Origin: a virus
Strand: one strand, 5' to 3'
Length of the DNA stretch: 34,202 nucleotides
IMG/VR virus record: IMGVR_UViG_3300020183_000258
Location: 1 to 34,202 of that record
Shown here piece after piece: positions 1,655-33,113 of the stretch (its first letter is position 1; every line of letters starts with the position of its first letter). Under the pieces are notes generated by a model. The model worked only from the letters and a program-made list of their open reading frames with translations. It was not told the DNA's origin and searched no databases. The translations under genes and the position numbers were made by a program.

Positions 1655-1945
1655 ATGGGTAACTTCGCCTCCGGCAAACACAGCTACAGTCTATGTGATC
1701 GGTGCGGCTTCCGCTATCGCTACCTGCAGATCCGCAACGAGCCGGGCACCCGGTGGCGCGTGTGCAGCACCTGCGATGATGGCGAATTCAACCTCGTCAC
1801 CCACCCACAGAATAGGCCCCCGCCCGTGTACCCCGACCCGCAGGCCATTCGATACCCCCGCCCTGATGTGCCCCTGGCCATCGACTACACTGAGACCGAT
1901 GACCAACAGCTTCCGCTGGATGACGGCGGGCCCGGAGGATCCTGA
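1655..1945 (+). CDS. small zinc-ribbon protein (96 aa)
   Basis: Four cysteines in two CxxC pairs (C14/C17 and C37/C40), with a 19-residue beta-rich spacer containing RYRYLQIRNE, form a clear zinc-ribbon signature. The C-terminal half is Pro- and Asp-rich and probably disordered (repeated YPxPxxIRYPRP). The gene starts 3 bases after the adaptor-like gene and its stop overlaps the next start (TGATG), so translation is probably coupled. Small zinc ribbons of this type occur in phage structural clusters. The partner and exact role are unknown. Confidence 0.65.
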   Translation: MGNFASGKHSYSLCDRCGFRYRYLQIRNEPGTRWRVCSTCDDGEFNLVTHPQNRPPPVYPDPQAIRYPRPDVPLAIDYTETDDQQLPLDDGGPGGS

Positions 1946-3396
1946 TGGCTATTGTCAACGCTGACCGCGTCCGGGAAAACACCACCACCAACGGCACTGG
2001 TGCTCTGGTTCTCCTTGGGGCCGTTACCAACTTCCAGACTTTCCTTTCGGGTGTGGGTAGCGGCAACCAGTGCTACTACGCCATCACCCACCAAAGCAAG
2101 AATGAGTTTGAAGTTGGGCTGGGTACCTTCACCCTCTCCGCTGGCATCCCGACCCTTTCCCGCAATACCATCTTCACTTCCTCCAACGGCAACCTCGTGG
2201 TGAATTTCACCTCCGGCACGAAGCAGTGCGCGGTAGTTTTCCCCGGCACCCAAATCGATACCATTGCCTCCAACGTGGGCGTAGCTGCCGGGTACGCCAA
2301 CGACGCCAACACCTACGCTGCGCTTGCCTCAGTGGCTGCCGTCGACGCCAACCTCTATAGGGTTTCCGCCGCTGCCGAAGCGTCTCTCGCGGGCACATAC
2401 GCTGCCGCCGCCTCGGTGTCCTACGTCGATGCCGCGAGTGCTGCCGCGCAGGCCGCCTCCCTTGCAGCCCAGATTTCCTCGGTTGCCACCGAAGCCTCCC
2501 TCGCGCTGGCGGCCGCCTCCCTCGCCCAGATCTACAAGACCTCCGCCTCCGCCTACGCCACCGAAGCCGGGGGCTATGCCTCAGTGGCCCAAATCTACAA
2601 GGTGTCTGCTAGCGCCTACGCTACGGATGCAGCCAACCAGGCCAGCATCGCCGGAGTCTACAAGGCTTCTGCGAGTGCCTTCGCCACCTCTGCGGCTGCT
2701 GATGCTTCCGCCGCCGCTGTCTCGCGCGCTGCCGCTTCCGCATTTGCCACGCAGGCCAACGACTCTGCCTCCGCAGCCTTGGTATATAGCAACTCGGCGG
2801 TGGCTGCAGCATCTGCGGCTTCGGTGGATGCCTCCCTCGCCTCCATCTATCGCACCAGCGCCAACGAGGCCGCCAGTGCTGCCAACGACTATGCGGCGCA
2901 GGCTTCTTCCTCTAACGTGTCGGCGGCGGCCAACGCATCCTCGGCGGCCATCTACGCAGCTTCCGCCCTCGCGGCGGCCACGAGTGCCAACAATGCGGCC
3001 AGCATCGCCGGGGTCTACGCGGCATCGGCGTCGGCATTTGCTTCGGCGGCTTCCCGCGATGCCTCCCTTGCCCTCATCTACAGGCTCTCCGCGTCGGCTT
3101 ACGCCACGGAAGCTGGGGGCTACGCCTCCCTAGCCCAAATCTACAAGATCTCGGCGGAAAGTGCGGCAAATGTCGCCAGTATCGCCGCAGTCTCTGCCAA
3201 TGCCGCCGCCTCCACGGCCATCGTGGAAGTTGCCAAGCTCAGCTCTTACATCAATGTGTCCACCGAGGGCCTCATTTTCCGAAACTCGGTGGGCCAGATC
3301 ACCACCAAGATTATCCTGGCGGGGGCCAACGCTTCCGTATCCTTTGATGGCAGTGGCAACTTTGTCATCAGCTTCGTGGGTGGATGGGGGAGATAA
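1945..3396 (+). CDS. tail fibre-like protein with Ala/Ser coiled-coil shaft (483 aa)
   Basis: The start ATG at 1945 has a good GGAGG at 1934-1938. Residues 1-105 form a compact beta domain (DRVRENTTTNGTGALVLLG ... EVGLGTFTL ... LSRNTIF.SSNG) that I know from the N-termini of many phage tail/fibre proteins, where it likely attaches the fibre to the tail. Residues about 115-426 are almost only Ala, Ser, Tyr and small residues in a regular 21-residue repeat (listed separately), consistent with a long trimeric coiled-coil shaft. The last 55 residues are a short beta-rich cap (FRNSVGQITTKIIL). No enzymatic or receptor-binding tip is evident; that may be supplied by the fibre gene at 4049. Confidence 0.75.
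   Translation: MAIVNADRVRENTTTNGTGALVLLGAVTNFQTFLSGVGSGNQCYYAITHQSKNEFEVGLGTFTLSAGIPTLSRNTIFTSSNGNLVVNFTSGTKQCAVVFPGTQIDTIASNVGVAAGYANDANTYAALASVAAVDANLYRVSAAAEASLAGTYAAAASVSYVDAASAAAQAASLAAQISSVATEASLALAAASLAQIYKTSASAYATEAGGYASVAQIYKVSASAYATDAANQASIAGVYKASASAFATSAAADASAAAVSRAAASAFATQANDSASAALVYSNSAVAAASAASVDASLASIYRTSANEAASAANDYAAQASSSNVSAAANASSAAIYAASALAAATSANNAASIAGVYAASASAFASAASRDASLALIYRLSASAYATEAGGYASLAQIYKISAESAANVASIAAVSANAAASTAIVEVAKLSSYINVSTEGLIFRNSVGQITTKIILAGANASVSFDGSGNFVISFVGGWGR
2530..3222 (+). repeat. 63-bp (21-residue) tandem coding repeats in the fibre shaft
   Basis: From residue 196 of the fibre the protein repeats every 21 residues with the pattern [IV]Y+xSASA[YF]ATxAxxxAS. 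Successive units begin near 2530, 2593, 2656, 2719, 2782 and 2845. One unit is extended by 14 residues, and the last units begin near 2950, 3013, 3076 and 3139. Twenty-one residues equal three heptads, so insertions of 14 (two heptads) keep the register. DNA identity between units is moderate, so this is old, diverged duplication rather than recent expansion. Confidence 0.8.
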
Positions 3397-4049
3397 TGGC
3401 TACGTCCTACACCGAACTCTACAATTACATCAAGAGCGCCTCCGAGAATGACGATTCGGAGTTTGCCTCTGCCATTCCCACCTTCATCGACCAGGCCCGA
3501 ATGCGCCTCAGCCGTGACATTGACACCTACGGCTTCGTAGTTTATACTACCGCTGCGGTCTCCACCTATCTCGTTTCGGTACCAAGCGATGCGTTGGTGC
3601 TGAAGGCCGTCAACTACGTGTCGGCGGGAAGGTATAGCCAACTTATCATGCGTACCGACGAGTTCCTCCGTGAGTATTGGCCCGACAGGACCTCCGTGGG
3701 GGAACCCAAGTACTACGCGCGTTGGGGCTTCAACCAGATCCTCATTGCCCCCGCACCCTCTACCAGCGCCTCCCTTGAGATTTCCTACGTGCAGATCCCC
3801 ACCAGCATTGGCAGCGTGGGTACCTCCACCAACTGGTTGACAGAGTATGCCCCCGAGGCCCTCTTCTACGGGTGCATGCATGAGGCCTGCATGTTCATGA
3901 AGAACTACCAGGCCGCCGGTATGTGGGAAGCCAAGTACCAGGATGCCGTAGCGAAGCTGCGCAACGAGGCCCGGCGCACCCGCCAGGATGACAACCTCAA
4001 CAATAACTCGCCCGCCGGTGGCGACAATACTCTGCAAGGTGGTGTGTAA
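3396..4049 (+). CDS. SU10-type head-tail adaptor protein (217 aa)
   Basis: I chose ATG 3396 rather than ATG 3384. It follows GGGGGAGA and overlaps the previous stop (TAATG), and the N-terminus MATSYTELYNYIKSASEND is typical of the family. The pattern is: N-terminal helices (FIDQARMRLSRDID, about 30-45), a beta core (YLVSVPSDAL, FLREYWPD, PKYYARWG...ILIAPAPS) and C-terminal helices (ALFYGCMHEACMFMKNYQ, then KYQDAVAKLRNEARR). This matches the phage adaptor family that sits under the portal ring and connects to the nozzle. The gene lies between two fibre genes and is translationally coupled to both. Confidence 0.7.
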   Translation: MATSYTELYNYIKSASENDDSEFASAIPTFIDQARMRLSRDIDTYGFVVYTTAAVSTYLVSVPSDALVLKAVNYVSAGRYSQLIMRTDEFLREYWPDRTSVGEPKYYARWGFNQILIAPAPSTSASLEISYVQIPTSIGSVGTSTNWLTEYAPEALFYGCMHEACMFMKNYQAAGMWEAKYQDAVAKLRNEARRTRQDDNLNNNSPAGGDNTLQGGV

Positions 4050-5389
4050 TGCCCTCTACCTACTCTCCCTCCCTCCGTCTGGAATTGCAGGCCACTGGCG
4101 AGAACGCCAACACCTGGGGTACCAAGACCAACAACAACCTGGAGTTGATCGAGCAGGCTGTAGCGGGCTACGTCAAGATCACCCTCACCAGCGCCTCCGC
4201 CACTTACCCCCTTACTATCGCAGATGCTTCGGCCTCCGATGGACGCAACGCCTACATCGAGTTCGTGGGCACGGTGGCTTCCGCCATCAGCATCACGGTG
4301 CCCGACGTGGAAAAGGGCTACTGGGTCAAGAATAGCGCCACGGGCAGTGCCCTCACTTTCCGCACCTCTTCGGGTACGGGCGTCGTCCTCCCCACCAACC
4401 AGTGGGTCAACCTCGTCAGCGACGGCGCTTCCATCACCTCCACCTTCCCCACCTCCATCGCCGGGTACGCTCTCCTCAGCGCCACCCAGACCTTCACGGG
4501 GGCCAACACCTTCACCTCGGCGGTGAACATCCAGAGCGCGACCTCCCTGGCTTCCACCTTGGTGGTAGGTGGCGCCGCAACCTTCAACAGCCAGGTCAGC
4601 GTTTCCGGCGTGATGGTCGTGGGCGCAGGCGCTGTGGCAACTCCCTCCTACAGCACTACCGGCGACACCAACACCGGCCTCTACTTCCCCTCCGCCGACA
4701 CCATTGCCGCGACGACGGGCGGTAATGAGCGCATGCGGATCGACTCCAGCGGTAATATAGGTATTGGTACGACTTCACCCGTTGCTGGATCAAGACTGGC
4801 GGTTGTCGGCGGCGGCATTCAGTTAAGCGGCGGTACTACTTCGCAAGAAGGTGTTCGTATTCAAAGGGCATCTGGTCTTTGTAGTTTTACCGGAATTAAC
4901 AACGACAACAATGCCTATAACGCCCTTACTTTTGCTACAGGTGCGTCTGAAGCCATGCGGATCGACAGCAGCGGCAAAGTCGGCATTGGGACGAGTTCGC
5001 CCGATTACCTTTTGACACTTCAGACCGGCGACGCAGCAATATCCATGAAGGATACTGGCGGAACAACCAGAGCCTATATTGGTACTGCTGGGATATTAGG
5101 TAGCGCGCCAACTGGTGCTTTGCGACTGCGGTCAGATCAGGGCGGCATAGTTTTCGGTTATCTTGGCTTCGAGACAATGCGGATCGACACCGCCGGCAAC
5201 GTCGTTGCGGGCGGGTCTGTGGCTCTAGCCACTACCGCCACGAACGGCTTCCTGTATGTGCCGACCTGCGCTGGCACGCCGACGGGGACGCCGACCGCAA
5301 TCACCGGCATGGCTCCCATCGTCGTCAACACCACCAATAACAAGCTCTTTTTCTACAGCGGCGGCGCATGGCGTGACGCCGGGCCATGA
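4049..5389 (+). CDS. tail fibre protein with RIDSSG repeats (446 aa)
   Basis: The N-terminal ~100 residues (SPSLRLELQATGENANTWG ... LIEQAVAGYV) are a well-known phage tail-fibre N-terminal domain. Residues 100-215 are beta-rich, with a T/S-rich shaft. From about residue 225 there are three RIDSSG/RIDTAG units near 4735, 4960 and 5180, two followed by a GIGT(T/S)SP segment, as in fibre shafts and knobs that recognise the host surface. The ending (NKLFFYSGGAWRDAG) is also typical. Codon use changes sharply near 4745, where third positions become less C-rich, so the distal half looks exchanged from another phage. Start ATG overlaps the preceding stop (TAATG). Confidence 0.75.
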   Translation: MPSTYSPSLRLELQATGENANTWGTKTNNNLELIEQAVAGYVKITLTSASATYPLTIADASASDGRNAYIEFVGTVASAISITVPDVEKGYWVKNSATGSALTFRTSSGTGVVLPTNQWVNLVSDGASITSTFPTSIAGYALLSATQTFTGANTFTSAVNIQSATSLASTLVVGGAATFNSQVSVSGVMVVGAGAVATPSYSTTGDTNTGLYFPSADTIAATTGGNERMRIDSSGNIGIGTTSPVAGSRLAVVGGGIQLSGGTTSQEGVRIQRASGLCSFTGINNDNNAYNALTFATGASEAMRIDSSGKVGIGTSSPDYLLTLQTGDAAISMKDTGGTTRAYIGTAGILGSAPTGALRLRSDQGGIVFGYLGFETMRIDTAGNVVAGGSVALATTATNGFLYVPTCAGTPTGTPTAITGMAPIVVNTTNNKLFFYSGGAWRDAGP

Positions 5390-28049: not shown

Positions 28050-28468
28050 TGGATCTCTCCGTATTCGCCTGGCTTGAGGGTGCGGATTTCCCAAGGGTCG
28101 AGAGCGTAGGGCTCGCCGCCGTCGAGGTTCTTGTAGATCTGGCAGAAGCTGATGGGCCGCCCAGCGAAAACGCGGGAGAGGGCAGCGCCATAGACTTCGC
28201 GCAGCTTCTTTTCCACGTTGCGCTTGCGGGTGAGCTTAACCTCCACCACCACGATGGGACCCTGCCGTGGGATGACGATGATGTCAGGCTGGCACACCGC
28301 CTTGTCCCAGTAGATCCACTGCCCATGGATGATGAAGTCGTGGAGGCTGCCCTGCTCCGCCATGTAGCGCACCACCTTCTTCTCGTAGAGGATGCCCTTG
28401 CGCTGGATACGTGAGGGCTTGTCCTTCGAGAGGAAGCTGGGCCTATGCCCGAGAGTTGGCGAGGACAT
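28040..28468 (-). CDS. PD-(D/E)XK nuclease domain protein (142 aa)
   Basis: ATG at 28468 (MSSPTLGHRP) has GGGAG eight bases before. The core shows the fold signature: E29 in 'GILYEKKVVRYM', D62 in 'CQPDIIVIPRQG', and E76-V-K78 in 'PIVVVEVKLT', followed by a helix with 'KLREVYGAAL'. This is the metal-dependent nuclease fold of RecB-like, Holliday-junction and restriction-type enzymes. With Sak4-like and polymerase genes nearby, a DNA repair or recombination role is likely. The exact substrate (branched, single- or double-stranded DNA) cannot be told. Confidence 0.7.
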   Translation of the reverse strand: MSSPTLGHRPSFLSKDKPSRIQRKGILYEKKVVRYMAEQGSLHDFIIHGQWIYWDKAVCQPDIIVIPRQGPIVVVEVKLTRKRNVEKKLREVYGAALSRVFAGRPISFCQIYKNLDGGEPYALDPWEIRTLKPGEYGEIQWR

Positions 28469-28769
28469 CGAGGACGGCTCCCACGATCTCCACGGGGTTG
28501 CCCTCCTTGTCGCGCAGGGCTGCATCGCGCATGGTTTCGAGGGGCACTCCGTGCTGCAGGGCGAGGGAGACGAGGGTGGCGGCAGTGCAGCAGATGGCGT
28601 AGAGGTCGGTACCGGCGCGGGGTCCCGAGATGAAGACCTCCCACACCTTTCCTTGGAGGGTGGAGTAGCTCAGGTGGTAGCGTTCCCCGTTGAAGTAGAG
28701 ATCCTCGATGGTGCTCTCACGTCGATTGGGGAGGCGGAAACGAGAAACTGAGATTGCTTCGCAGGACAT
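28443..28769 (-). CDS. TSCPD-domain protein, ribonucleotide reductase-related (108 aa)
   Basis: The product has the TSCPD-type pattern found at the C-termini of vitamin B12-dependent ribonucleotide reductases and as small stand-alone proteins: 'RFRLPNRR' near the start, 'GKVWEVFISGPRAGTD' (~40-55), 'AATLVSLALQHGVPLETMRDA' (~63-83) and 'GNPVEIVGAVLDVL' (~91-104). Stand-alone copies are frequent in phages of alphaproteobacteria. A role in nucleotide metabolism is suspected but not proven. It overlaps the nuclease gene by 26 bases and the 58-aa gene upstream by 53. Confidence 0.65.
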   Translation of the reverse strand: MSCEAISVSRFRLPNRRESTIEDLYFNGERYHLSYSTLQGKVWEVFISGPRAGTDLYAICCTAATLVSLALQHGVPLETMRDAALRDKEGNPVEIVGAVLDVLANSRA

Positions 28770-28893
28770 AGACGGATCCTTCCTTCTCGACTCGGATGTC
28801 GATCTCGATGTCTTTCTTGCGCCAGTAGGCGCGGATGCGGTTGGCTAGTAGCAGACTGTAGTGGCGCGAGTCAAGGTAGTCAGGCGAGTCCAT
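28717..28893 (-). CDS. small hypothetical protein between polymerase and TSCPD gene (58 aa)
   Basis: Reading leftward from ATG at 28893 gives MDSPDYLDSRHYSLLLANRI, then RAYWRKKDIEIDIRVEKEG and VYVLRSNL. The 'LAxRIxxYW++' and 'VRSNL' pattern resembles small proteins next to TSCPD genes in bacteria and phages (from memory). The start overlaps the polymerase stop region by 14 bases and the gene overlaps the TSCPD gene by 53 bases. It is short but fits the only gap between them. Confidence 0.6.
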   Translation of the reverse strand: MDSPDYLDSRHYSLLLANRIRAYWRKKDIEIDIRVEKEGSVYVLRSNLSFSFPPPQST

Positions 28894-30268
28894 CTGGGTT
28901 GTCCTTCTTCTTCTTGCCCCAGTTCATCCCGACCTGGGACTCCCACGGGATAAGCATGGTGCGGGTCTTGCCCCAAATATCCCGCACTTCCAAGGTACGT
29001 GTCAAGCATTTAATTATCTCTGGTACAAGAATATCCTTGCGCTCGATGGGTACCTGGCAGAAGGAAGCATCATGGATGTTGTTTAGTATCTGGACTTCGG
29101 GCAGGGTGTTGCGAATGGCGAGCAGGCCGTTGGAGGTCATGTCCCCCACGGTACTCTGGGGGGTGAAGGCGATGGCGGCTCGCACGGTGGCGTCGTCATG
29201 AGGGTTGCCCCAGAAGTTTCGGACTCTGCCGAAGGGGGTGGTGAGTTTGCGCACGGTCTGGAGTTGCTGGGCTACCCACACCTGCCACTTGCGCAGGTTG
29301 GGAAATGCGCGGAAGTACTTGGACTGGAAGTCCTCGATGATGGGCAGGTCTACCTTGAGGACGCGAGCAATGGTATGAGCTGATCCACCATAGTTGCTGC
29401 CATGAGCTGCTCGCTTTGCGATATCGCGAAAGGACATTTCTCGATAGTACTTGCGATCCGCCAGGTCGCGCTTAGGTTCAAAGCCGAAGACCATGGAGGC
29501 CACCATGGTGTGGACATCACCGGATTCGATTGCCTGTATGTACTTGTCATCACCGGCCAGGTATGCAACAACTCGGGCTTCAGCACCTTGTTGATCGCAG
29601 TTGACGAAGATGTAGCCAGGATCCGGTATGAATATGCGACGGATGTAGTCATCGATGTTTTGAAGATTAGATCCCCAACCAAATGGATGGCTACTACTGC
29701 TCCAGCGCCCGGTATCCGTGCCGCCAATATTGAAGCTAGCATGCCATCGTGCGTCAGGGGAAAGGTCCTTGGTGAGGGTATCAATGGTCTTCTCCAGGTC
29801 CCGCATGGCAAGCAGGCAGGCAGTGATGGGGATGGCGCGCACGTAGTCACGTTGCAGGCGCTCAAGGGTATCGCGGTCGGTGGAGATCTTCTTCTCGCCC
29901 TTCTTCGATACGTAGACCTCGGGCAGCATGAGGTCCTTGTAGAGCAGGGTCTTGAGCTGCATGGGGCTGCGCGGGTTGACCTTGCGCCCGAAGACTCCGG
30001 TGCAGATGGAATTGAAGACGTGGCACGTTCGGTCCCGTTGCTCGCGAAGATGGAGGACCATCTCGTCGCGCCGCTGCATGTCGATGCGGATGCCGCGCCG
30101 CATCATGTCAAGGACGAGGGGCAGGAGGCTGCGCTCGAACTCGTAGGTGGAACTGCGCGGAATGCAGGAGGCGATCTCTTGGGTGAGCATGCCATCCAGC
30201 CCGTTGTACACGAGGTACTGGAGGGGGAAATCCATCTCGGGCAGGGCATCGCTGTAGAGGGTCTTCAT
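28880..30268 (-). CDS. family A DNA polymerase, polymerase subunit lacking most of the exonuclease (462 aa)
   Basis: The N-terminal 30 residues (YLVYNGLDGMLTQEI) match only the last exonuclease motif (Exo III, Y21-xxx-D25). The polymerase domain is complete: 'TDTGRWSSSS...NLQNI' (184-205), motif A with D225 and E230 (VNCDQQGAEARVVAYLAGD), motif B R281-xxx-K285-xxx-H289-G-xx-Y293-G, and motif C with H399-D400-A. It copies the phage genome. Exo I and Exo II lie in the separate protein at 30718-31689, so the polymerase looks split inside the exonuclease domain. Unusual residues: His289 where E. coli has Phe762, and Ala after the motif C Asp. ATG overlaps the previous stop. Confidence 0.85.
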   Translation of the reverse strand: MKTLYSDALPEMDFPLQYLVYNGLDGMLTQEIASCIPRSSTYEFERSLLPLVLDMMRRGIRIDMQRRDEMVLHLREQRDRTCHVFNSICTGVFGRKVNPRSPMQLKTLLYKDLMLPEVYVSKKGEKKISTDRDTLERLQRDYVRAIPITACLLAMRDLEKTIDTLTKDLSPDARWHASFNIGGTDTGRWSSSSHPFGWGSNLQNIDDYIRRIFIPDPGYIFVNCDQQGAEARVVAYLAGDDKYIQAIESGDVHTMVASMVFGFEPKRDLADRKYYREMSFRDIAKRAAHGSNYGGSAHTIARVLKVDLPIIEDFQSKYFRAFPNLRKWQVWVAQQLQTVRKLTTPFGRVRNFWGNPHDDATVRAAIAFTPQSTVGDMTSNGLLAIRNTLPEVQILNNIHDASFCQVPIERKDILVPEIIKCLTRTLEVRDIWGKTRTMLIPWESQVGMNWGKKKKDNPDGLA

Positions 30269-30429
30269 CTGATGTCTCGTTCCATGGCGAGCACGAGGGT
30301 GAGCATGAGGTGGTAGGCTTGGGGGAGGGGCAGGATGATGCGCCGGAGGGATCCCTGCTCCACGACGTTGAGGACTATGCCGTCTCTGGTGCGAGTTGCA
30401 TAGGCCAGGGTGGGTTCCTGGTAGTTCAT
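30265..30429 (-). CDS. small hypothetical protein inserted in the polymerase locus (54 aa)
   Basis: ATG at 30429 overlaps the previous stop, and its own stop overlaps the polymerase ATG at 30268 (ATGA at both ends). The product (MNYQEPTLAYATRTRDGIVL ... LMLTLVLAMERDIR) has a beta N-terminal half and a C-terminal helix. No recognised family. Tight coupling on both sides suggests translation is linked to that of the polymerase. Confidence 0.55.
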   Translation of the reverse strand: MNYQEPTLAYATRTRDGIVLNVVEQGSLRRIILPLPQAYHLMLTLVLAMERDIR

Positions 30430-30725
30430 CGCCGCAGGGTTTCGCCCCGCTGGATCATGCCCTCCACGCGGGCACGGAAGGACGAGTACTCGATGTCCAG
30501 CAGGTGGCACATGCCCTTGAGTTCGGTGGCGGAGACAGAGAAGATCACGCTGCGGGCGCTGTTGCGGATGGGGTCGGGGACGTGGGGATTGGTTGCGTCG
30601 TCAACGGCCTGGATGATGATGGCGAGGAGGAGCTTCTCTTCCGGCAGCAGGGGTCGGCCTTGGATTTCCTCGGCCAGATCGTATTTGATGTCGTCCCAAC
30701 CGCTGGATATGAGAAGCTCACTCAT
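30426..30725 (-). CDS. hypothetical protein inserted in the polymerase locus (99 aa)
   Basis: The ATG at 30725 lies within the last codons of the UDG/exonuclease gene (8-base overlap). The product (MSELLISSGWDDIKYDLAEE ... PEEKLLLAIIIQAVDDATNP ... RNSARSVIFSVSATELKGMC) is helical, with a 'RNSAR.xIFS' motif I associate with small phage proteins near replication genes. It contains no HNH, GIY-YIG or LAGLIDADG motif, so it is not a recognised homing endonuclease. Function unknown. Confidence 0.6.
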   Translation of the reverse strand: MSELLISSGWDDIKYDLAEEIQGRPLLPEEKLLLAIIIQAVDDATNPHVPDPIRNSARSVIFSVSATELKGMCHLLDIEYSSFRARVEGMIQRGETLRR

Positions 30726-31689
30726 CCTTCTTGTTCCGATCCTTTACCTTGCCGACGCGCATGAGCTTCCACGACTTCTCGTTGCAGTAGATGCTGCCAA
30801 GGAAACCCAAGGACTTGGGCCATTCGATCTCATTACTATGGCTCATGAGCATGGTGTCGTCAACAACTCCCGGTACGTGGATACCGTGGGCACCAAGGTA
30901 GGTGAGATCGTAGGTGGCGTTCTGGGCCACCCGCTTGAGGGGAAGGAGGAAGAGCAACTGGATGAGGGCCCAGAGCTGGAGTTCATCCTTGAAGGAGAAG
31001 GTGGAGGTGGGGTTCCAGAAGGGAACCACGTAGACCTCGCGGGAGGAGGGGGCAAAGCAGATGACGGTGATCTGCTGGGCCTTGGTTTCCACGTCGAAGG
31101 CGAAGGATCCGGACTTGACGCAGGCGTCAATGCATCGATGCATGTCGCCGGGGTTCTCCACTATGTGGAGGGTGCGCCGGGGGAATACGCTGCGTGGTTT
31201 GAGGGATTCCTGCCAGGCCTTCTTGAGGTCCATGGCGAGGACGGGCAGGAGGGAGTGGTCCTTCAGAAAAGACCGGGGATTGTGGGTTGGCAGGACACGG
31301 ATGTTGTTCCAGTAGAGGATTGTTCCCCGGTGATCCAGCATCTTGTCGCCCGTGAGGCACCAGAGGGCAAGGTCACCCATAGGGACAAGGAACTTCTGCT
31401 TGCTGCACTCGTCTCGTACTCGATGGTAATCTGGCAGAAACTCTGACTTGAGGTAGCCAAGCTGGGAGTGGAGGGGGTTGCCTCTCGCTTCATCCGGGCA
31501 GTCCTTCCTTGCGTGGAAGTAGGTAGAGGGGTTGGAGAACCTGGGCAGGGTGTGGAAGAGGAAGGTCATGGGCGGCTGGGGCATGCCCGCATAGCGCATG
31601 GCAATGCCCAGCATCTTGGCCGGGAACCCCGTTACGCTGCTACCGCTGCGCAGGTCATGCACTGAGGGGTAGTCCAGCACCATCATCAT
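30718..31689 (-). CDS. uracil-DNA glycosylase-like fold fused to partial 3'-5' exonuclease (323 aa)
   Basis: Residues ~1-165 resemble the UDG-like domain that precedes phage polymerases: 'GSSVTGFPAKMLGIAMRYAG' (16-35), 'FLVPMGDLALWCLTG' (100-114) and 'RVLPTHNPRSFLKD' (131-144). Residues ~190-323 hold Exo I (D199-V-E201, FAFDVET) and Exo II (N257 to D261, QNATYDLTYL), then 'PKSLGFLGSIYCNEKSW', after which the frame ends in a basic tail. Exo III is in the next large gene. The normal catalytic opening of UDG (GEAPG-like) is not seen, so glycosylase activity is doubtful. Start is one of three ATGs (31689/31686/31683). It probably works with the polymerase as a second subunit. Confidence 0.7.
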   Translation of the reverse strand: MMMVLDYPSVHDLRSGSSVTGFPAKMLGIAMRYAGMPQPPMTFLFHTLPRFSNPSTYFHARKDCPDEARGNPLHSQLGYLKSEFLPDYHRVRDECSKQKFLVPMGDLALWCLTGDKMLDHRGTILYWNNIRVLPTHNPRSFLKDHSLLPVLAMDLKKAWQESLKPRSVFPRRTLHIVENPGDMHRCIDACVKSGSFAFDVETKAQQITVICFAPSSREVYVVPFWNPTSTFSFKDELQLWALIQLLFLLPLKRVAQNATYDLTYLGAHGIHVPGVVDDTMLMSHSNEIEWPKSLGFLGSIYCNEKSWKLMRVGKVKDRNKKDE

Positions 31690-31765: not shown

Positions 31766-32173
31766 TCAGGCTGCGGAGATGTTGATGCACTCCCAGTAGG
31801 TGCGGTCGCTGCCATCACGCGCCTTCTTCTGGACGAAGTCGAAGGACACCTTCTCCATGACGATGCTGTCCGCCAGCTCCTTGGCAGTACCCGGCTTGAG
31901 GACGCTGGGGTTGACCCGCTTCACGACACCGGCCAGGCGGGGGATGGCGGGCTTGGTGTCGTAGAAGGTCTCCGACTTCAGCTCCACGGACATCTCCACG
32001 CCCTCAGTATCCTGGCCCGACAGCGGCTCCTCGGCACGGATGAGGAAGCGCACCGTGGTGGTGCCCTTGGCGGTTTTGCCATTGAGGATGCCACAGATGA
32101 CGCCTGCATACTTGCCCGGCGGGAGCCAGCGGCGGCCCTCGAAATCCTCGAGAGTATAGATCTGGTCAGACAT
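31766..32173 (-). CDS. candidate ssDNA-binding or recombination accessory protein (135 aa)
   Basis: ATG at 32173 has AGGAAAG upstream. The product (MSDQIYTLEDFEGRRWLPPG ... KYAGVICGILNGKTAKGTTT ... VSFDFVQKKARDGSDRTYWE) is a single beta-rich domain with alternating basic and aromatic residues, as in OB-fold-like binders. It follows a Sak4-like ATPase gene; in many phages Sak4 is paired with an ssDNA-binding protein. No diagnostic motif identifies it, so this is inference from composition and position. Confidence 0.4.
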   Translation of the reverse strand: MSDQIYTLEDFEGRRWLPPGKYAGVICGILNGKTAKGTTTVRFLIRAEEPLSGQDTEGVEMSVELKSETFYDTKPAIPRLAGVVKRVNPSVLKPGTAKELADSIVMEKVSFDFVQKKARDGSDRTYWECINISAA

Positions 32174-32184
32174 TTTCTTTCCTT

Positions 32185-32937
32185 TCAGGTTTCGATCTGC
32201 TTGAAGATTGCGCCGAGATCGAATGGCGCTTCTGCATTGACCCGATGGGGTGCACTGCATTTCAGGTAGGACATGTCCCGCGTGGTCTGCGTATGGAGGA
32301 CTGGCTTGCCGTCCTTGCGTGTTGCGAGCCAGACGTTGTTCATGTAGCGAGCTACCACGTTGGGGAGTTGCTGTCCTAGGAAACTTGGGAAGGCGCGCAT
32401 GATTCCGCCCGTCTTCTTGTTCTCGATCATGCGAATGTGCGAGATGAGAATCAAGTGGAACTTGTAGCGGTCGGAGGTGAGGCGGGCAACCTGCGTCTCG
32501 AAGCGTTTGTTCATGACGCCCCAGAGGGACTGGTCGAAGCCAGCCTTGTCGTCGGCAATGCCGTTCTCCTTGAGGACCTGGGACATGCAGGTATCGTTCC
32601 AGAAGGAGGCACTGTCCACCACGAGGACGGTGTTGCTGTCCCAGGTGGTGAGGTCCCCGAGGTCTTCGTCGGGCAGGGTCCACTTGGTGGTGATGCTCAC
32701 CGACTTCTTCCACGAGTCCGGATCCTTGGCCGGGATGGAGAAGTAGGAGATGTTGTCCGCCTTGCTTGGCTTGAGGTAGGCGTTGAGGATGGCGAGATTG
32801 TTGTCGAGATCGAGGATGCGCACCTTGTAGTCGAGGTTGGCAAGGGTGGCCAAGAGGCCGGTCTTTCCTGCGCCGGGATCCCCCAGCAGCAGGAGCTTCA
32901 TCCTGCGCTGGTTGGGATGCTGGGAGAAGGTTGGCAT
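32185..32937 (-). CDS. Sak4-like RecA-fold ATPase (250 aa)
   Basis: ATG at 32937 (MPTFSQHPNQRRMKLLLLGD) is preferred to TTG 32949 because GGAG lies seven bases before it. Walker A is GDPGAGKT (19-26, Lys25 and Thr26) and Walker B ends at Asp108 (TVLVVDSASF). 'FHLILISHIRMIENKKTGG' and 'QQLPNVVARYMNNVWLAT' follow as in phage Sak4-type annealing/strand-exchange ATPases. It would load on ssDNA and support annealing in recombination or replication restart. It is next to the candidate ssDNA-binding gene. Confidence 0.7.
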   Translation of the reverse strand: MPTFSQHPNQRRMKLLLLGDPGAGKTGLLATLANLDYKVRILDLDNNLAILNAYLKPSKADNISYFSIPAKDPDSWKKSVSITTKWTLPDEDLGDLTTWDSNTVLVVDSASFWNDTCMSQVLKENGIADDKAGFDQSLWGVMNKRFETQVARLTSDRYKFHLILISHIRMIENKKTGGIMRAFPSFLGQQLPNVVARYMNNVWLATRKDGKPVLHTQTTRDMSYLKCSAPHRVNAEAPFDLGAIFKQIET

Positions 32938-33113
32938 GATGCACTCCAATCTATTTCATCAAGATAAGCCCACGACATCGTGCCGTCGGGCAGGATGATG
33001 TCGTAGCTGGTTCCTAGCTCGACCGTGTAGCGTTCGTCAAGCACGATCTTCACGAGGGTGCCAGGGCCGTGGCCGTTGATGGTGGCAGTGAGGGGTACTA
33101 CACGTTGCGCCAT
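32898..33113 (-). CDS. hypothetical small protein (71 aa)
   Basis: ATG at 33113 (MAQRVVPLTATINGHGPGTL); upstream GGAG is about 11 bases away, so the site is weak. The body is beta-rich with 'YDIILPDGTMSWAYLDEIDW', ending in a Ser/Pro tail. It overlaps the Sak4 gene by 40 bases and the membrane protein gene by 16. No recognised function. Confidence 0.5.
   Translation of the reverse strand: MAQRVVPLTATINGHGPGTLVKIVLDERYTVELGTSYDIILPDGTMSWAYLDEIDWSASCQPSPSIPTSAG

What the first reader, a model, noticed from the sequence alone, without database searches (positions are those of the whole stretch)
28880..31689. DNA polymerase split inside its exonuclease domain by two small genes
Exo I (D199/E201) and Exo II (N257/D261) sit at the end of the UDG-like protein, while Exo III (Y21/D25) sits at the beginning of the polymerase protein. 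The two parts would join smoothly ('SLGFLGSIYCNEKSW' then 'YNGLDGML'). Between them are two genes (30426-30725, 30265-30429) linked by ATGA-type overlaps, with no homing endonuclease or intein motif. A two-subunit proofreading polymerase would be unusual.
Basis: partly seen in the sequence, partly recalled or inferred. Interest (0 to 1): 0.85.

Follow-up and report, generated by a model that had tools for sequence, protein, structure and literature searches.

The report
Phage DNA polymerase split through its proofreader
A large group of uncultured phages, and one cultured phage of Caulobacter, make their DNA polymerase as two separate proteins cut through the middle of the proofreading site, so the proofreader can probably work only when the two proteins come together.

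Summary
The split is real and is not local damage. The 323-aa protein (31689-30718, -) carries a family-4-UDG-like domain and the exonuclease core with Exo I and Exo II. The 462-aa protein (30268-28880, -) begins with the Exo III helix, followed by a complete family A polymerase. Two small genes lie between, joined by 8-, 4- and 4-nt overlaps.

I found 158 non-identical loci with the cut at the same place and no fused relative inside that clade. They form one side of a single branch (SH-aLRT 99). The six exonuclease residues are kept in practically all of them, four on one chain and two on the other.

The sequence at the seam varies: P0003-type gene plus others, nucleotide-metabolism genes, unrelated genes, or nothing (10 loci). 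This rules out an intron, an intein or assembly error as the reason for the split. Caulobacter phage Kuura, a cultured phage with a complete genome, has only this polymerase.

Best reading: a two-chain polymerase whose proofreading site is assembled in trans. Separate exonuclease and polymerase genes are already reported (LUZ24 group, phiEco32), but LUZ24 keeps Exo I-III together on one protein. The cut inside the active site is the new part. Association of the two chains is inferred, not shown.

The parts
30718..31689 (-). First half of the split polymerase (323 aa): family-4-UDG-like domain (about 1-165), then 3'-5' exonuclease core with Exo I D199/E201 and Exo II N257/D261
30718..30765 (-). 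Conserved C-terminal tail after invariant W307-K308 (15 residues plus the stop codon); the last 12 residues are disordered in the single-chain model; candidate contact with the second half
30426..30725 (-). Small gene P0003 (99 aa), first gene at the seam; family of unknown function found at the seam in the window clade and the marine clade, absent from the fused loci examined
30265..30429 (-). Small gene P0004 (54 aa), second gene at the seam; this slot is variable in relatives
28880..30268 (-). Second half of the split polymerase (462 aa): Exo III Y21/D25 on helix 14-35, then complete family A polymerase (catalytic D225, D400; motif B R281/K285, His289 at the E. coli 762 position)
31766..32173 (-). 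Unnamed 135-aa gene just upstream in the same gene cluster
   Evidence: no family match
32185..32949 (-). Sak4-like ssDNA-annealing ATPase upstream in the same gene cluster (replication/recombination module)

Best explanation
This is a two-chain family A DNA polymerase. Chain 1 (UDG-like domain plus Exo I/II) and chain 2 (Exo III helix plus thumb, palm and fingers) are translated separately from one overlapping operon and associate. The helix that carries Y21 and D25 docks into the exonuclease core of chain 1 and completes the two-metal proofreading site in trans. The cut lies where the Klenow loop between Exo II and Exo III lies, a place that tolerates a break. It arose once, in an ancestor with an unsplit UDG-exo-pol gene, and has not been healed in any relative seen. 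The seam then became a place where small genes, often of nucleotide metabolism, come and go. Shown: the split, its single origin, its conservation, and retention of all catalytic residues on both chains. Inferred: association of the chains, proofreading activity, and the role of the tail (1) and head (2) as an interface.
For: Same cut in 158 non-identical loci: chain 1 ends 11-18 aa after an invariant W/Y-K in 157 of 158, and chain 2 can start 14-32 codons before the Exo III Tyr in 157 of 158. Split loci form one side of one branch, SH-aLRT 98 and 99. D199, E201, N257, D261, Y21, D25 are kept in practically all, while neighbouring residues vary. Wherever the contig reaches upstream, both halves are present. 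Models of the halves tile Klenow. pN/pS is about 0.3-0.4 in both halves. Kuura, a plaque-forming isolate with a complete genome, has only this polymerase and no PolB or PolIII alpha (PMC9959647).
Against: No complex was predicted or purified; the folding tool takes single chains. The Exo III residues could be kept for another reason, such as folding of the thumb linker. Host polymerase might do the replication.
Confidence: 0.82

Rival explanations
1. The two proteins are made separately and do not share an active site: chain 1 is a free-standing UDG/exonuclease-like repair protein and chain 2 an exonuclease-free polymerase.
For: Each half folds with high confidence on its own (pLDDT 88 and 90); polymerases without working exonuclease exist (Bst, Taq; own knowledge).
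Against: Y21 and D25 on the polymerase chain and DxE/NxxxD on the other are invariant in effect across the clade, and the halves are always found together and close. A lone chain 1 lacks an Exo III residue.
Confidence: 0.1
2. The halves are joined after transcription or translation (intron, trans-splicing, split intein, ribosomal bypass), so the working enzyme is one chain.
For: Introns and inteins are common in phage polymerase genes; close relatives carry an intein elsewhere in this same gene (motif B).
Against: No Rfam match; tails of only 11-18 aa hold no intein half; the seam holds unrelated genes or none, with 6 or more changes of the no-gene state; no fused relative in the clade.
Confidence: 0.03
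3. Decaying pseudogene or assembly artefact.
For: A single sequence would not exclude it.
Against: 158 loci from many datasets plus a finished isolate; purifying selection.
Confidence: 0.01
4. The chains associate, but the exonuclease site is structural or regulatory only and does not proofread.
For: Activity was not tested.
Against: Retention of all six catalytic residues while neighbours vary.
Confidence: 0.04

Closest known systems
LUZ24-group phages (LUZ24, PaP3, tf, UFV-P2) and phiEco32: separate exonuclease and polymerase genes
   Same: Phage family A polymerase with proofreading exonuclease and polymerase on different genes with small genes between (PMC3517423, PMC3890496).
   Different: LUZ24 gp25 keeps Exo I, II and III (YCLQD) on one 169-aa protein, so the cut is at the domain border. 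Here the cut is inside the domain, before Exo III, and chain 1 also bears a UDG-like domain.
Caulobacter phage Kuura (OQ067476)
   Same: Same cut, at the same residues, with two small genes at the seam; isolate; chain 1 annotated 'hypothetical protein'.
   Different: The seam genes are unrelated to P0003/P0004; only 29-38% identity.
OM43 phages MEP401/MEP402 split PolA (PMC10580990)
   Same: PolA in two ORFs with a small ORF between, also common among relatives.
   Different: Cut inside the polymerase domain; the whole exonuclease is on the first ORF.
Unsplit UDG-like-exo-pol phage polymerases (ctMlz233 MW202489, Microcystis phage Mel-JY34)
   Same: Same domain order, His at the 762 position, nearest unsplit sequences in the tree.
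   Different: One polypeptide.
Split T4-like or archaeal PolB and split-intein polymerases (own knowledge; MIJ3 PolB in PMC6892783)
   Same: Replicative polymerase encoded in pieces.
   Different: Family B, other cut sites, often rejoined by intein splicing; here family A with no intein at the seam.

Membership tests
Family A DNA polymerase (PolA) | DNA_pol_A domain with motif A, B and C residues | tested here: met
   PF00476 1.3e-42; D225, R281, K285, Y293, H399, D400 conserved; Klenow Z 35.8
DEDDy 3'-5' exonuclease of PolA | Exo I DxE, Exo II NxxxD and Exo III YxxxD all present | tested here: met
   Met by the two chains together, 4 residues on chain 1 and 2 on chain 2; neither chain alone has the set
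DEDDy 3'-5' exonuclease of PolA | Exonuclease activity | not testable with these tools
   needs purified proteins
Family 4 uracil-DNA glycosylase | UDG fold | tested here: met
   residues 1-166, Z 15.3 to 1ui1; TM0511 4e-8 by profile
Family 4 uracil-DNA glycosylase | Fe-S cysteines and catalytic motif A | tested here: inconclusive
   alignment begins at chain residue 36-47 of known members, so the N-terminal cysteine segment seems absent; motif A region reads DYPSVHD; catalysis not tested
LUZ24-type separate exonuclease subunit | complete Exo I-III on one separate protein | tested here: not met
   Exo III is on the polymerase chain
Intron- or intein-interrupted polymerase | self-splicing RNA or intein blocks at the break | tested here: not met
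   no Rfam match; short tails, no intein blocks; relatives with no insert still split

The most novel reading that the evidence does not exclude
The proofreading site of a replicative polymerase is shared between two chains in a large, old phage clade because this is useful: proofreading (and the UDG-like module) can be switched or dosed by assembly, with the P0003-family protein at the seam as a third subunit that holds or regulates the junction.
Probability: 0.2. Interest if true: 0.8.

Novelty: new variant of a known kind. Interest (0 to 1): 0.64.

Why it matters
DEDDy proofreading exonucleases are usually described as one-chain domains. Here the metal-binding residues come from two genes, the arrangement arose once, and it has lasted through a large clade of phages. 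That offers a natural split polymerase in which proofreading could be added or left out by mixing chains, and a cultured phage (Kuura) in which to test it. It also shows that annotation hides it: chain 1 is called hypothetical in the only isolate.

Tried and rejected
Intron at the seam: no Rfam hit at E<=1. Intein: absent at the seam; a likely intein was found elsewhere in relatives. Prophage copies: the genome-contig scan with the polymerase alignment found no relative. Family assignment of P0003/P0004: none in Pfam, PHROGs or NCBIfam; tblastn of a marine P0003 relative gave only E 0.3-0.5 hits in Pelagibacter phages. A second intact polymerase in the same genomes: none by PolA profile, PolB or PolIII alpha. 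The pN/pS comparisons for P0004 with L009 used a wrong frame and are ignored. Paper searches for split phage PolA found only PMC10580990, PMC6892783, PMC7824862 and, through LUZ24, PMC3517423 and PMC3890496; a report outside that open-access library may exist.

Full report
OBSERVATION. The window (a 34,202-base virus record) carries on the minus strand four overlapping genes: 31689-30718 (P0001, 323 aa), 30725-30426 (P0003, 99 aa), 30429-30265 (P0004, 54 aa) and 30268-28880 (P0002, 462 aa). Overlaps are 8, 4 and 4 nt. P0002 is a family A polymerase (PF00476, 1.3e-42); P0001 has a sub-threshold match to the PolA 3'-5' exonuclease. PHROG 17, phage DNA polymerase, is matched at 553-798 by P0001 and 816-1238 by P0002. 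An alignment to unsplit relatives and Klenow puts the break in the loop between the Exo II region and the Exo III helix, with nothing missing.

DOMAINS. Profiles of relatives hit type-4 uracil-DNA glycosylases (TM0511, 4e-8) and the Klenow exonuclease (2.4e-5) for P0001, and Taq/Klenow polymerase (down to 1.6e-44) for P0002. AlphaFold2 models are confident (pLDDT 88 and 90). Model N matches family 4 UDG over 1-166 (Z 15.3) and Klenow 324-484 over 169-319 (Z 12.1). Model C matches Klenow 467-928 over 3-462 (Z 35.8). The last 12 residues of N and the first 5 of C are the stretches with pLDDT under 50.

THE SPLIT IS OLD AND STABLE. Searches with single proteins and with alignments gave several hundred loci in viral contigs. 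In a survey of stop-to-stop frames, 159 non-identical loci have the two parts in different frames. One of these, ctLwi270 (L217), is cut elsewhere, which leaves 158 with this cut. All 110 new loci with enough upstream sequence from the last three scans were split. The only fused forms lie outside the clade. Chain 1 ends 11-18 residues after the conserved W/Y-K in 157, and chain 2 has a start 14-32 codons before the Exo III tyrosine in 157 of 158. In trees, the split loci are one side of one branch (35 rows, SH-aLRT 98; 95 rows, SH-aLRT 99).

THE SEAM VARIES. The distance from the chain 1 stop to the Exo III codon runs from 57 to 2,392 nt. P0003 relatives lie at the seam in the window clade and the marine clade (69 of 79 loci; the wider six-frame search leaves only the Kuura-like lineages without it), and they are absent from the fused loci examined. 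Other seam genes are ThyX, dATP/dGTP diphosphohydrolase, dCTP deaminase/dUTPase-like, DUF1937, DUF3310 and DUF6378. Ten loci have no room for a gene; in L120 a GTG start follows the stop of chain 1 by 2 nt. The no-gene state needs at least 6 changes on the tree. An intron, an intein or an inserted element therefore does not explain the split, and no Rfam family matches the region.

THE ACTIVE SITE IS KEPT ON BOTH CHAINS. Over all loci, D199, E201, N257, D261 (chain 1) and Y21, D25 (chain 2) are the same residue in 158-159 of 159 rows. Neighbouring positions vary: F198 is F in 96, N22 is N in 128, G23 is G in 119. Only 23 of 319 chain 1 columns and 49 of 451 chain 2 columns are 97% conserved, so six of six by chance would be about 3e-7 (rough, columns taken as independent). 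pN/pS between close relatives is about 0.3-0.4 for both halves and 0.3-0.6 for P0003; P0004 is weaker at 0.5-0.9.

IT OCCURS IN A VIABLE PHAGE. Caulobacter phage Kuura, a plaque-forming podovirus with a complete genome (PMC9959647), has the same cut between Kuura_029 (annotated hypothetical) and Kuura_026, with two unrelated genes between. Kuura, the window record and five other long records have no PolB or PolIII alpha. Nine of nine viral records tested have one PolA only; two of these, G002 and G003, give two pieces because of the intein.

MECHANISM. The most likely mechanism is a heterodimer in which the Exo III helix of the polymerase chain completes the exonuclease core of the other chain. 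The conserved tail of chain 1 and head of chain 2 would form the junction. The genetic and evolutionary parts are shown; association and proofreading are inferred.

COMPARISON. Exonuclease and polymerase on separate genes are reported for the LUZ24 group and phiEco32 (PMC3517423). I translated LUZ24 gp25: it holds Exo I, II and III on one protein, so that cut is at the domain border, as it is in ctLwi270. OM43 phages (PMC10580990) and VS-ABTNL-3 are cut inside the polymerase domain. A cut inside the exonuclease active site, fixed across a large clade, was not found in the papers searched. I rate it a new variant of a known kind.

Noticed in passing
L033, L035, L036, L037, L042 (polymerase ORF, after residue 290 of P0002): A 294-aa in-frame insert beginning CLTSDHEVLTPSG and ending IMVTGN before Ser, in motif B of the polymerase: an intein by its end blocks, not matched by Pfam or NCBIfam. 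L110/L112 carry a shorter insert (about 150 aa) at the same site. The window lacks it.
   Followed up: partly
window 28880-30268 (residue 289 of P0002): The position equal to E. coli PolA 762 is His in the split clade and in its nearest unsplit relatives (ctMlz233, Mel-JY34, Desulfofustis phage), where the virioplankton PolA paper (PMC6302109) describes Phe, Tyr or Leu types.
   Followed up: partly
L216 (Vibrio phage VS-ABTNL-3) 3456-6590: PolA cut at another place, inside the polymerase domain, with a 184-aa gene of unknown function between the parts.
   Followed up: partly
L217 (ctLwi270) 1727-4364: PolA cut between the exonuclease and polymerase domains, after Exo III, like LUZ24.
   Followed up: partly
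window 30426-30725 and relatives: P0003 is a small protein family with no Pfam, PHROG or NCBIfam match, found right after the first polymerase half in most of the window and marine clades; its helical end could be a helix-turn-helix.
   Followed up: partly
no window coordinate: BFVD entry A0A6J7X5H1: A 313-aa 'exonuclease domain containing protein' of an uncultured phage matches the whole P0001 model (TM about 0.8): another free-standing first half in public data.
   Followed up: no
window 28443-28769 (-): A 108-aa protein with a TSCPD-domain match (E 1.5e-5) standing alone downstream of the polymerase.
   Followed up: no
L031 polymerase ORF: A frame break around residues 73-77 of the polymerase half, probably a sequencing or assembly error.
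   Followed up: no
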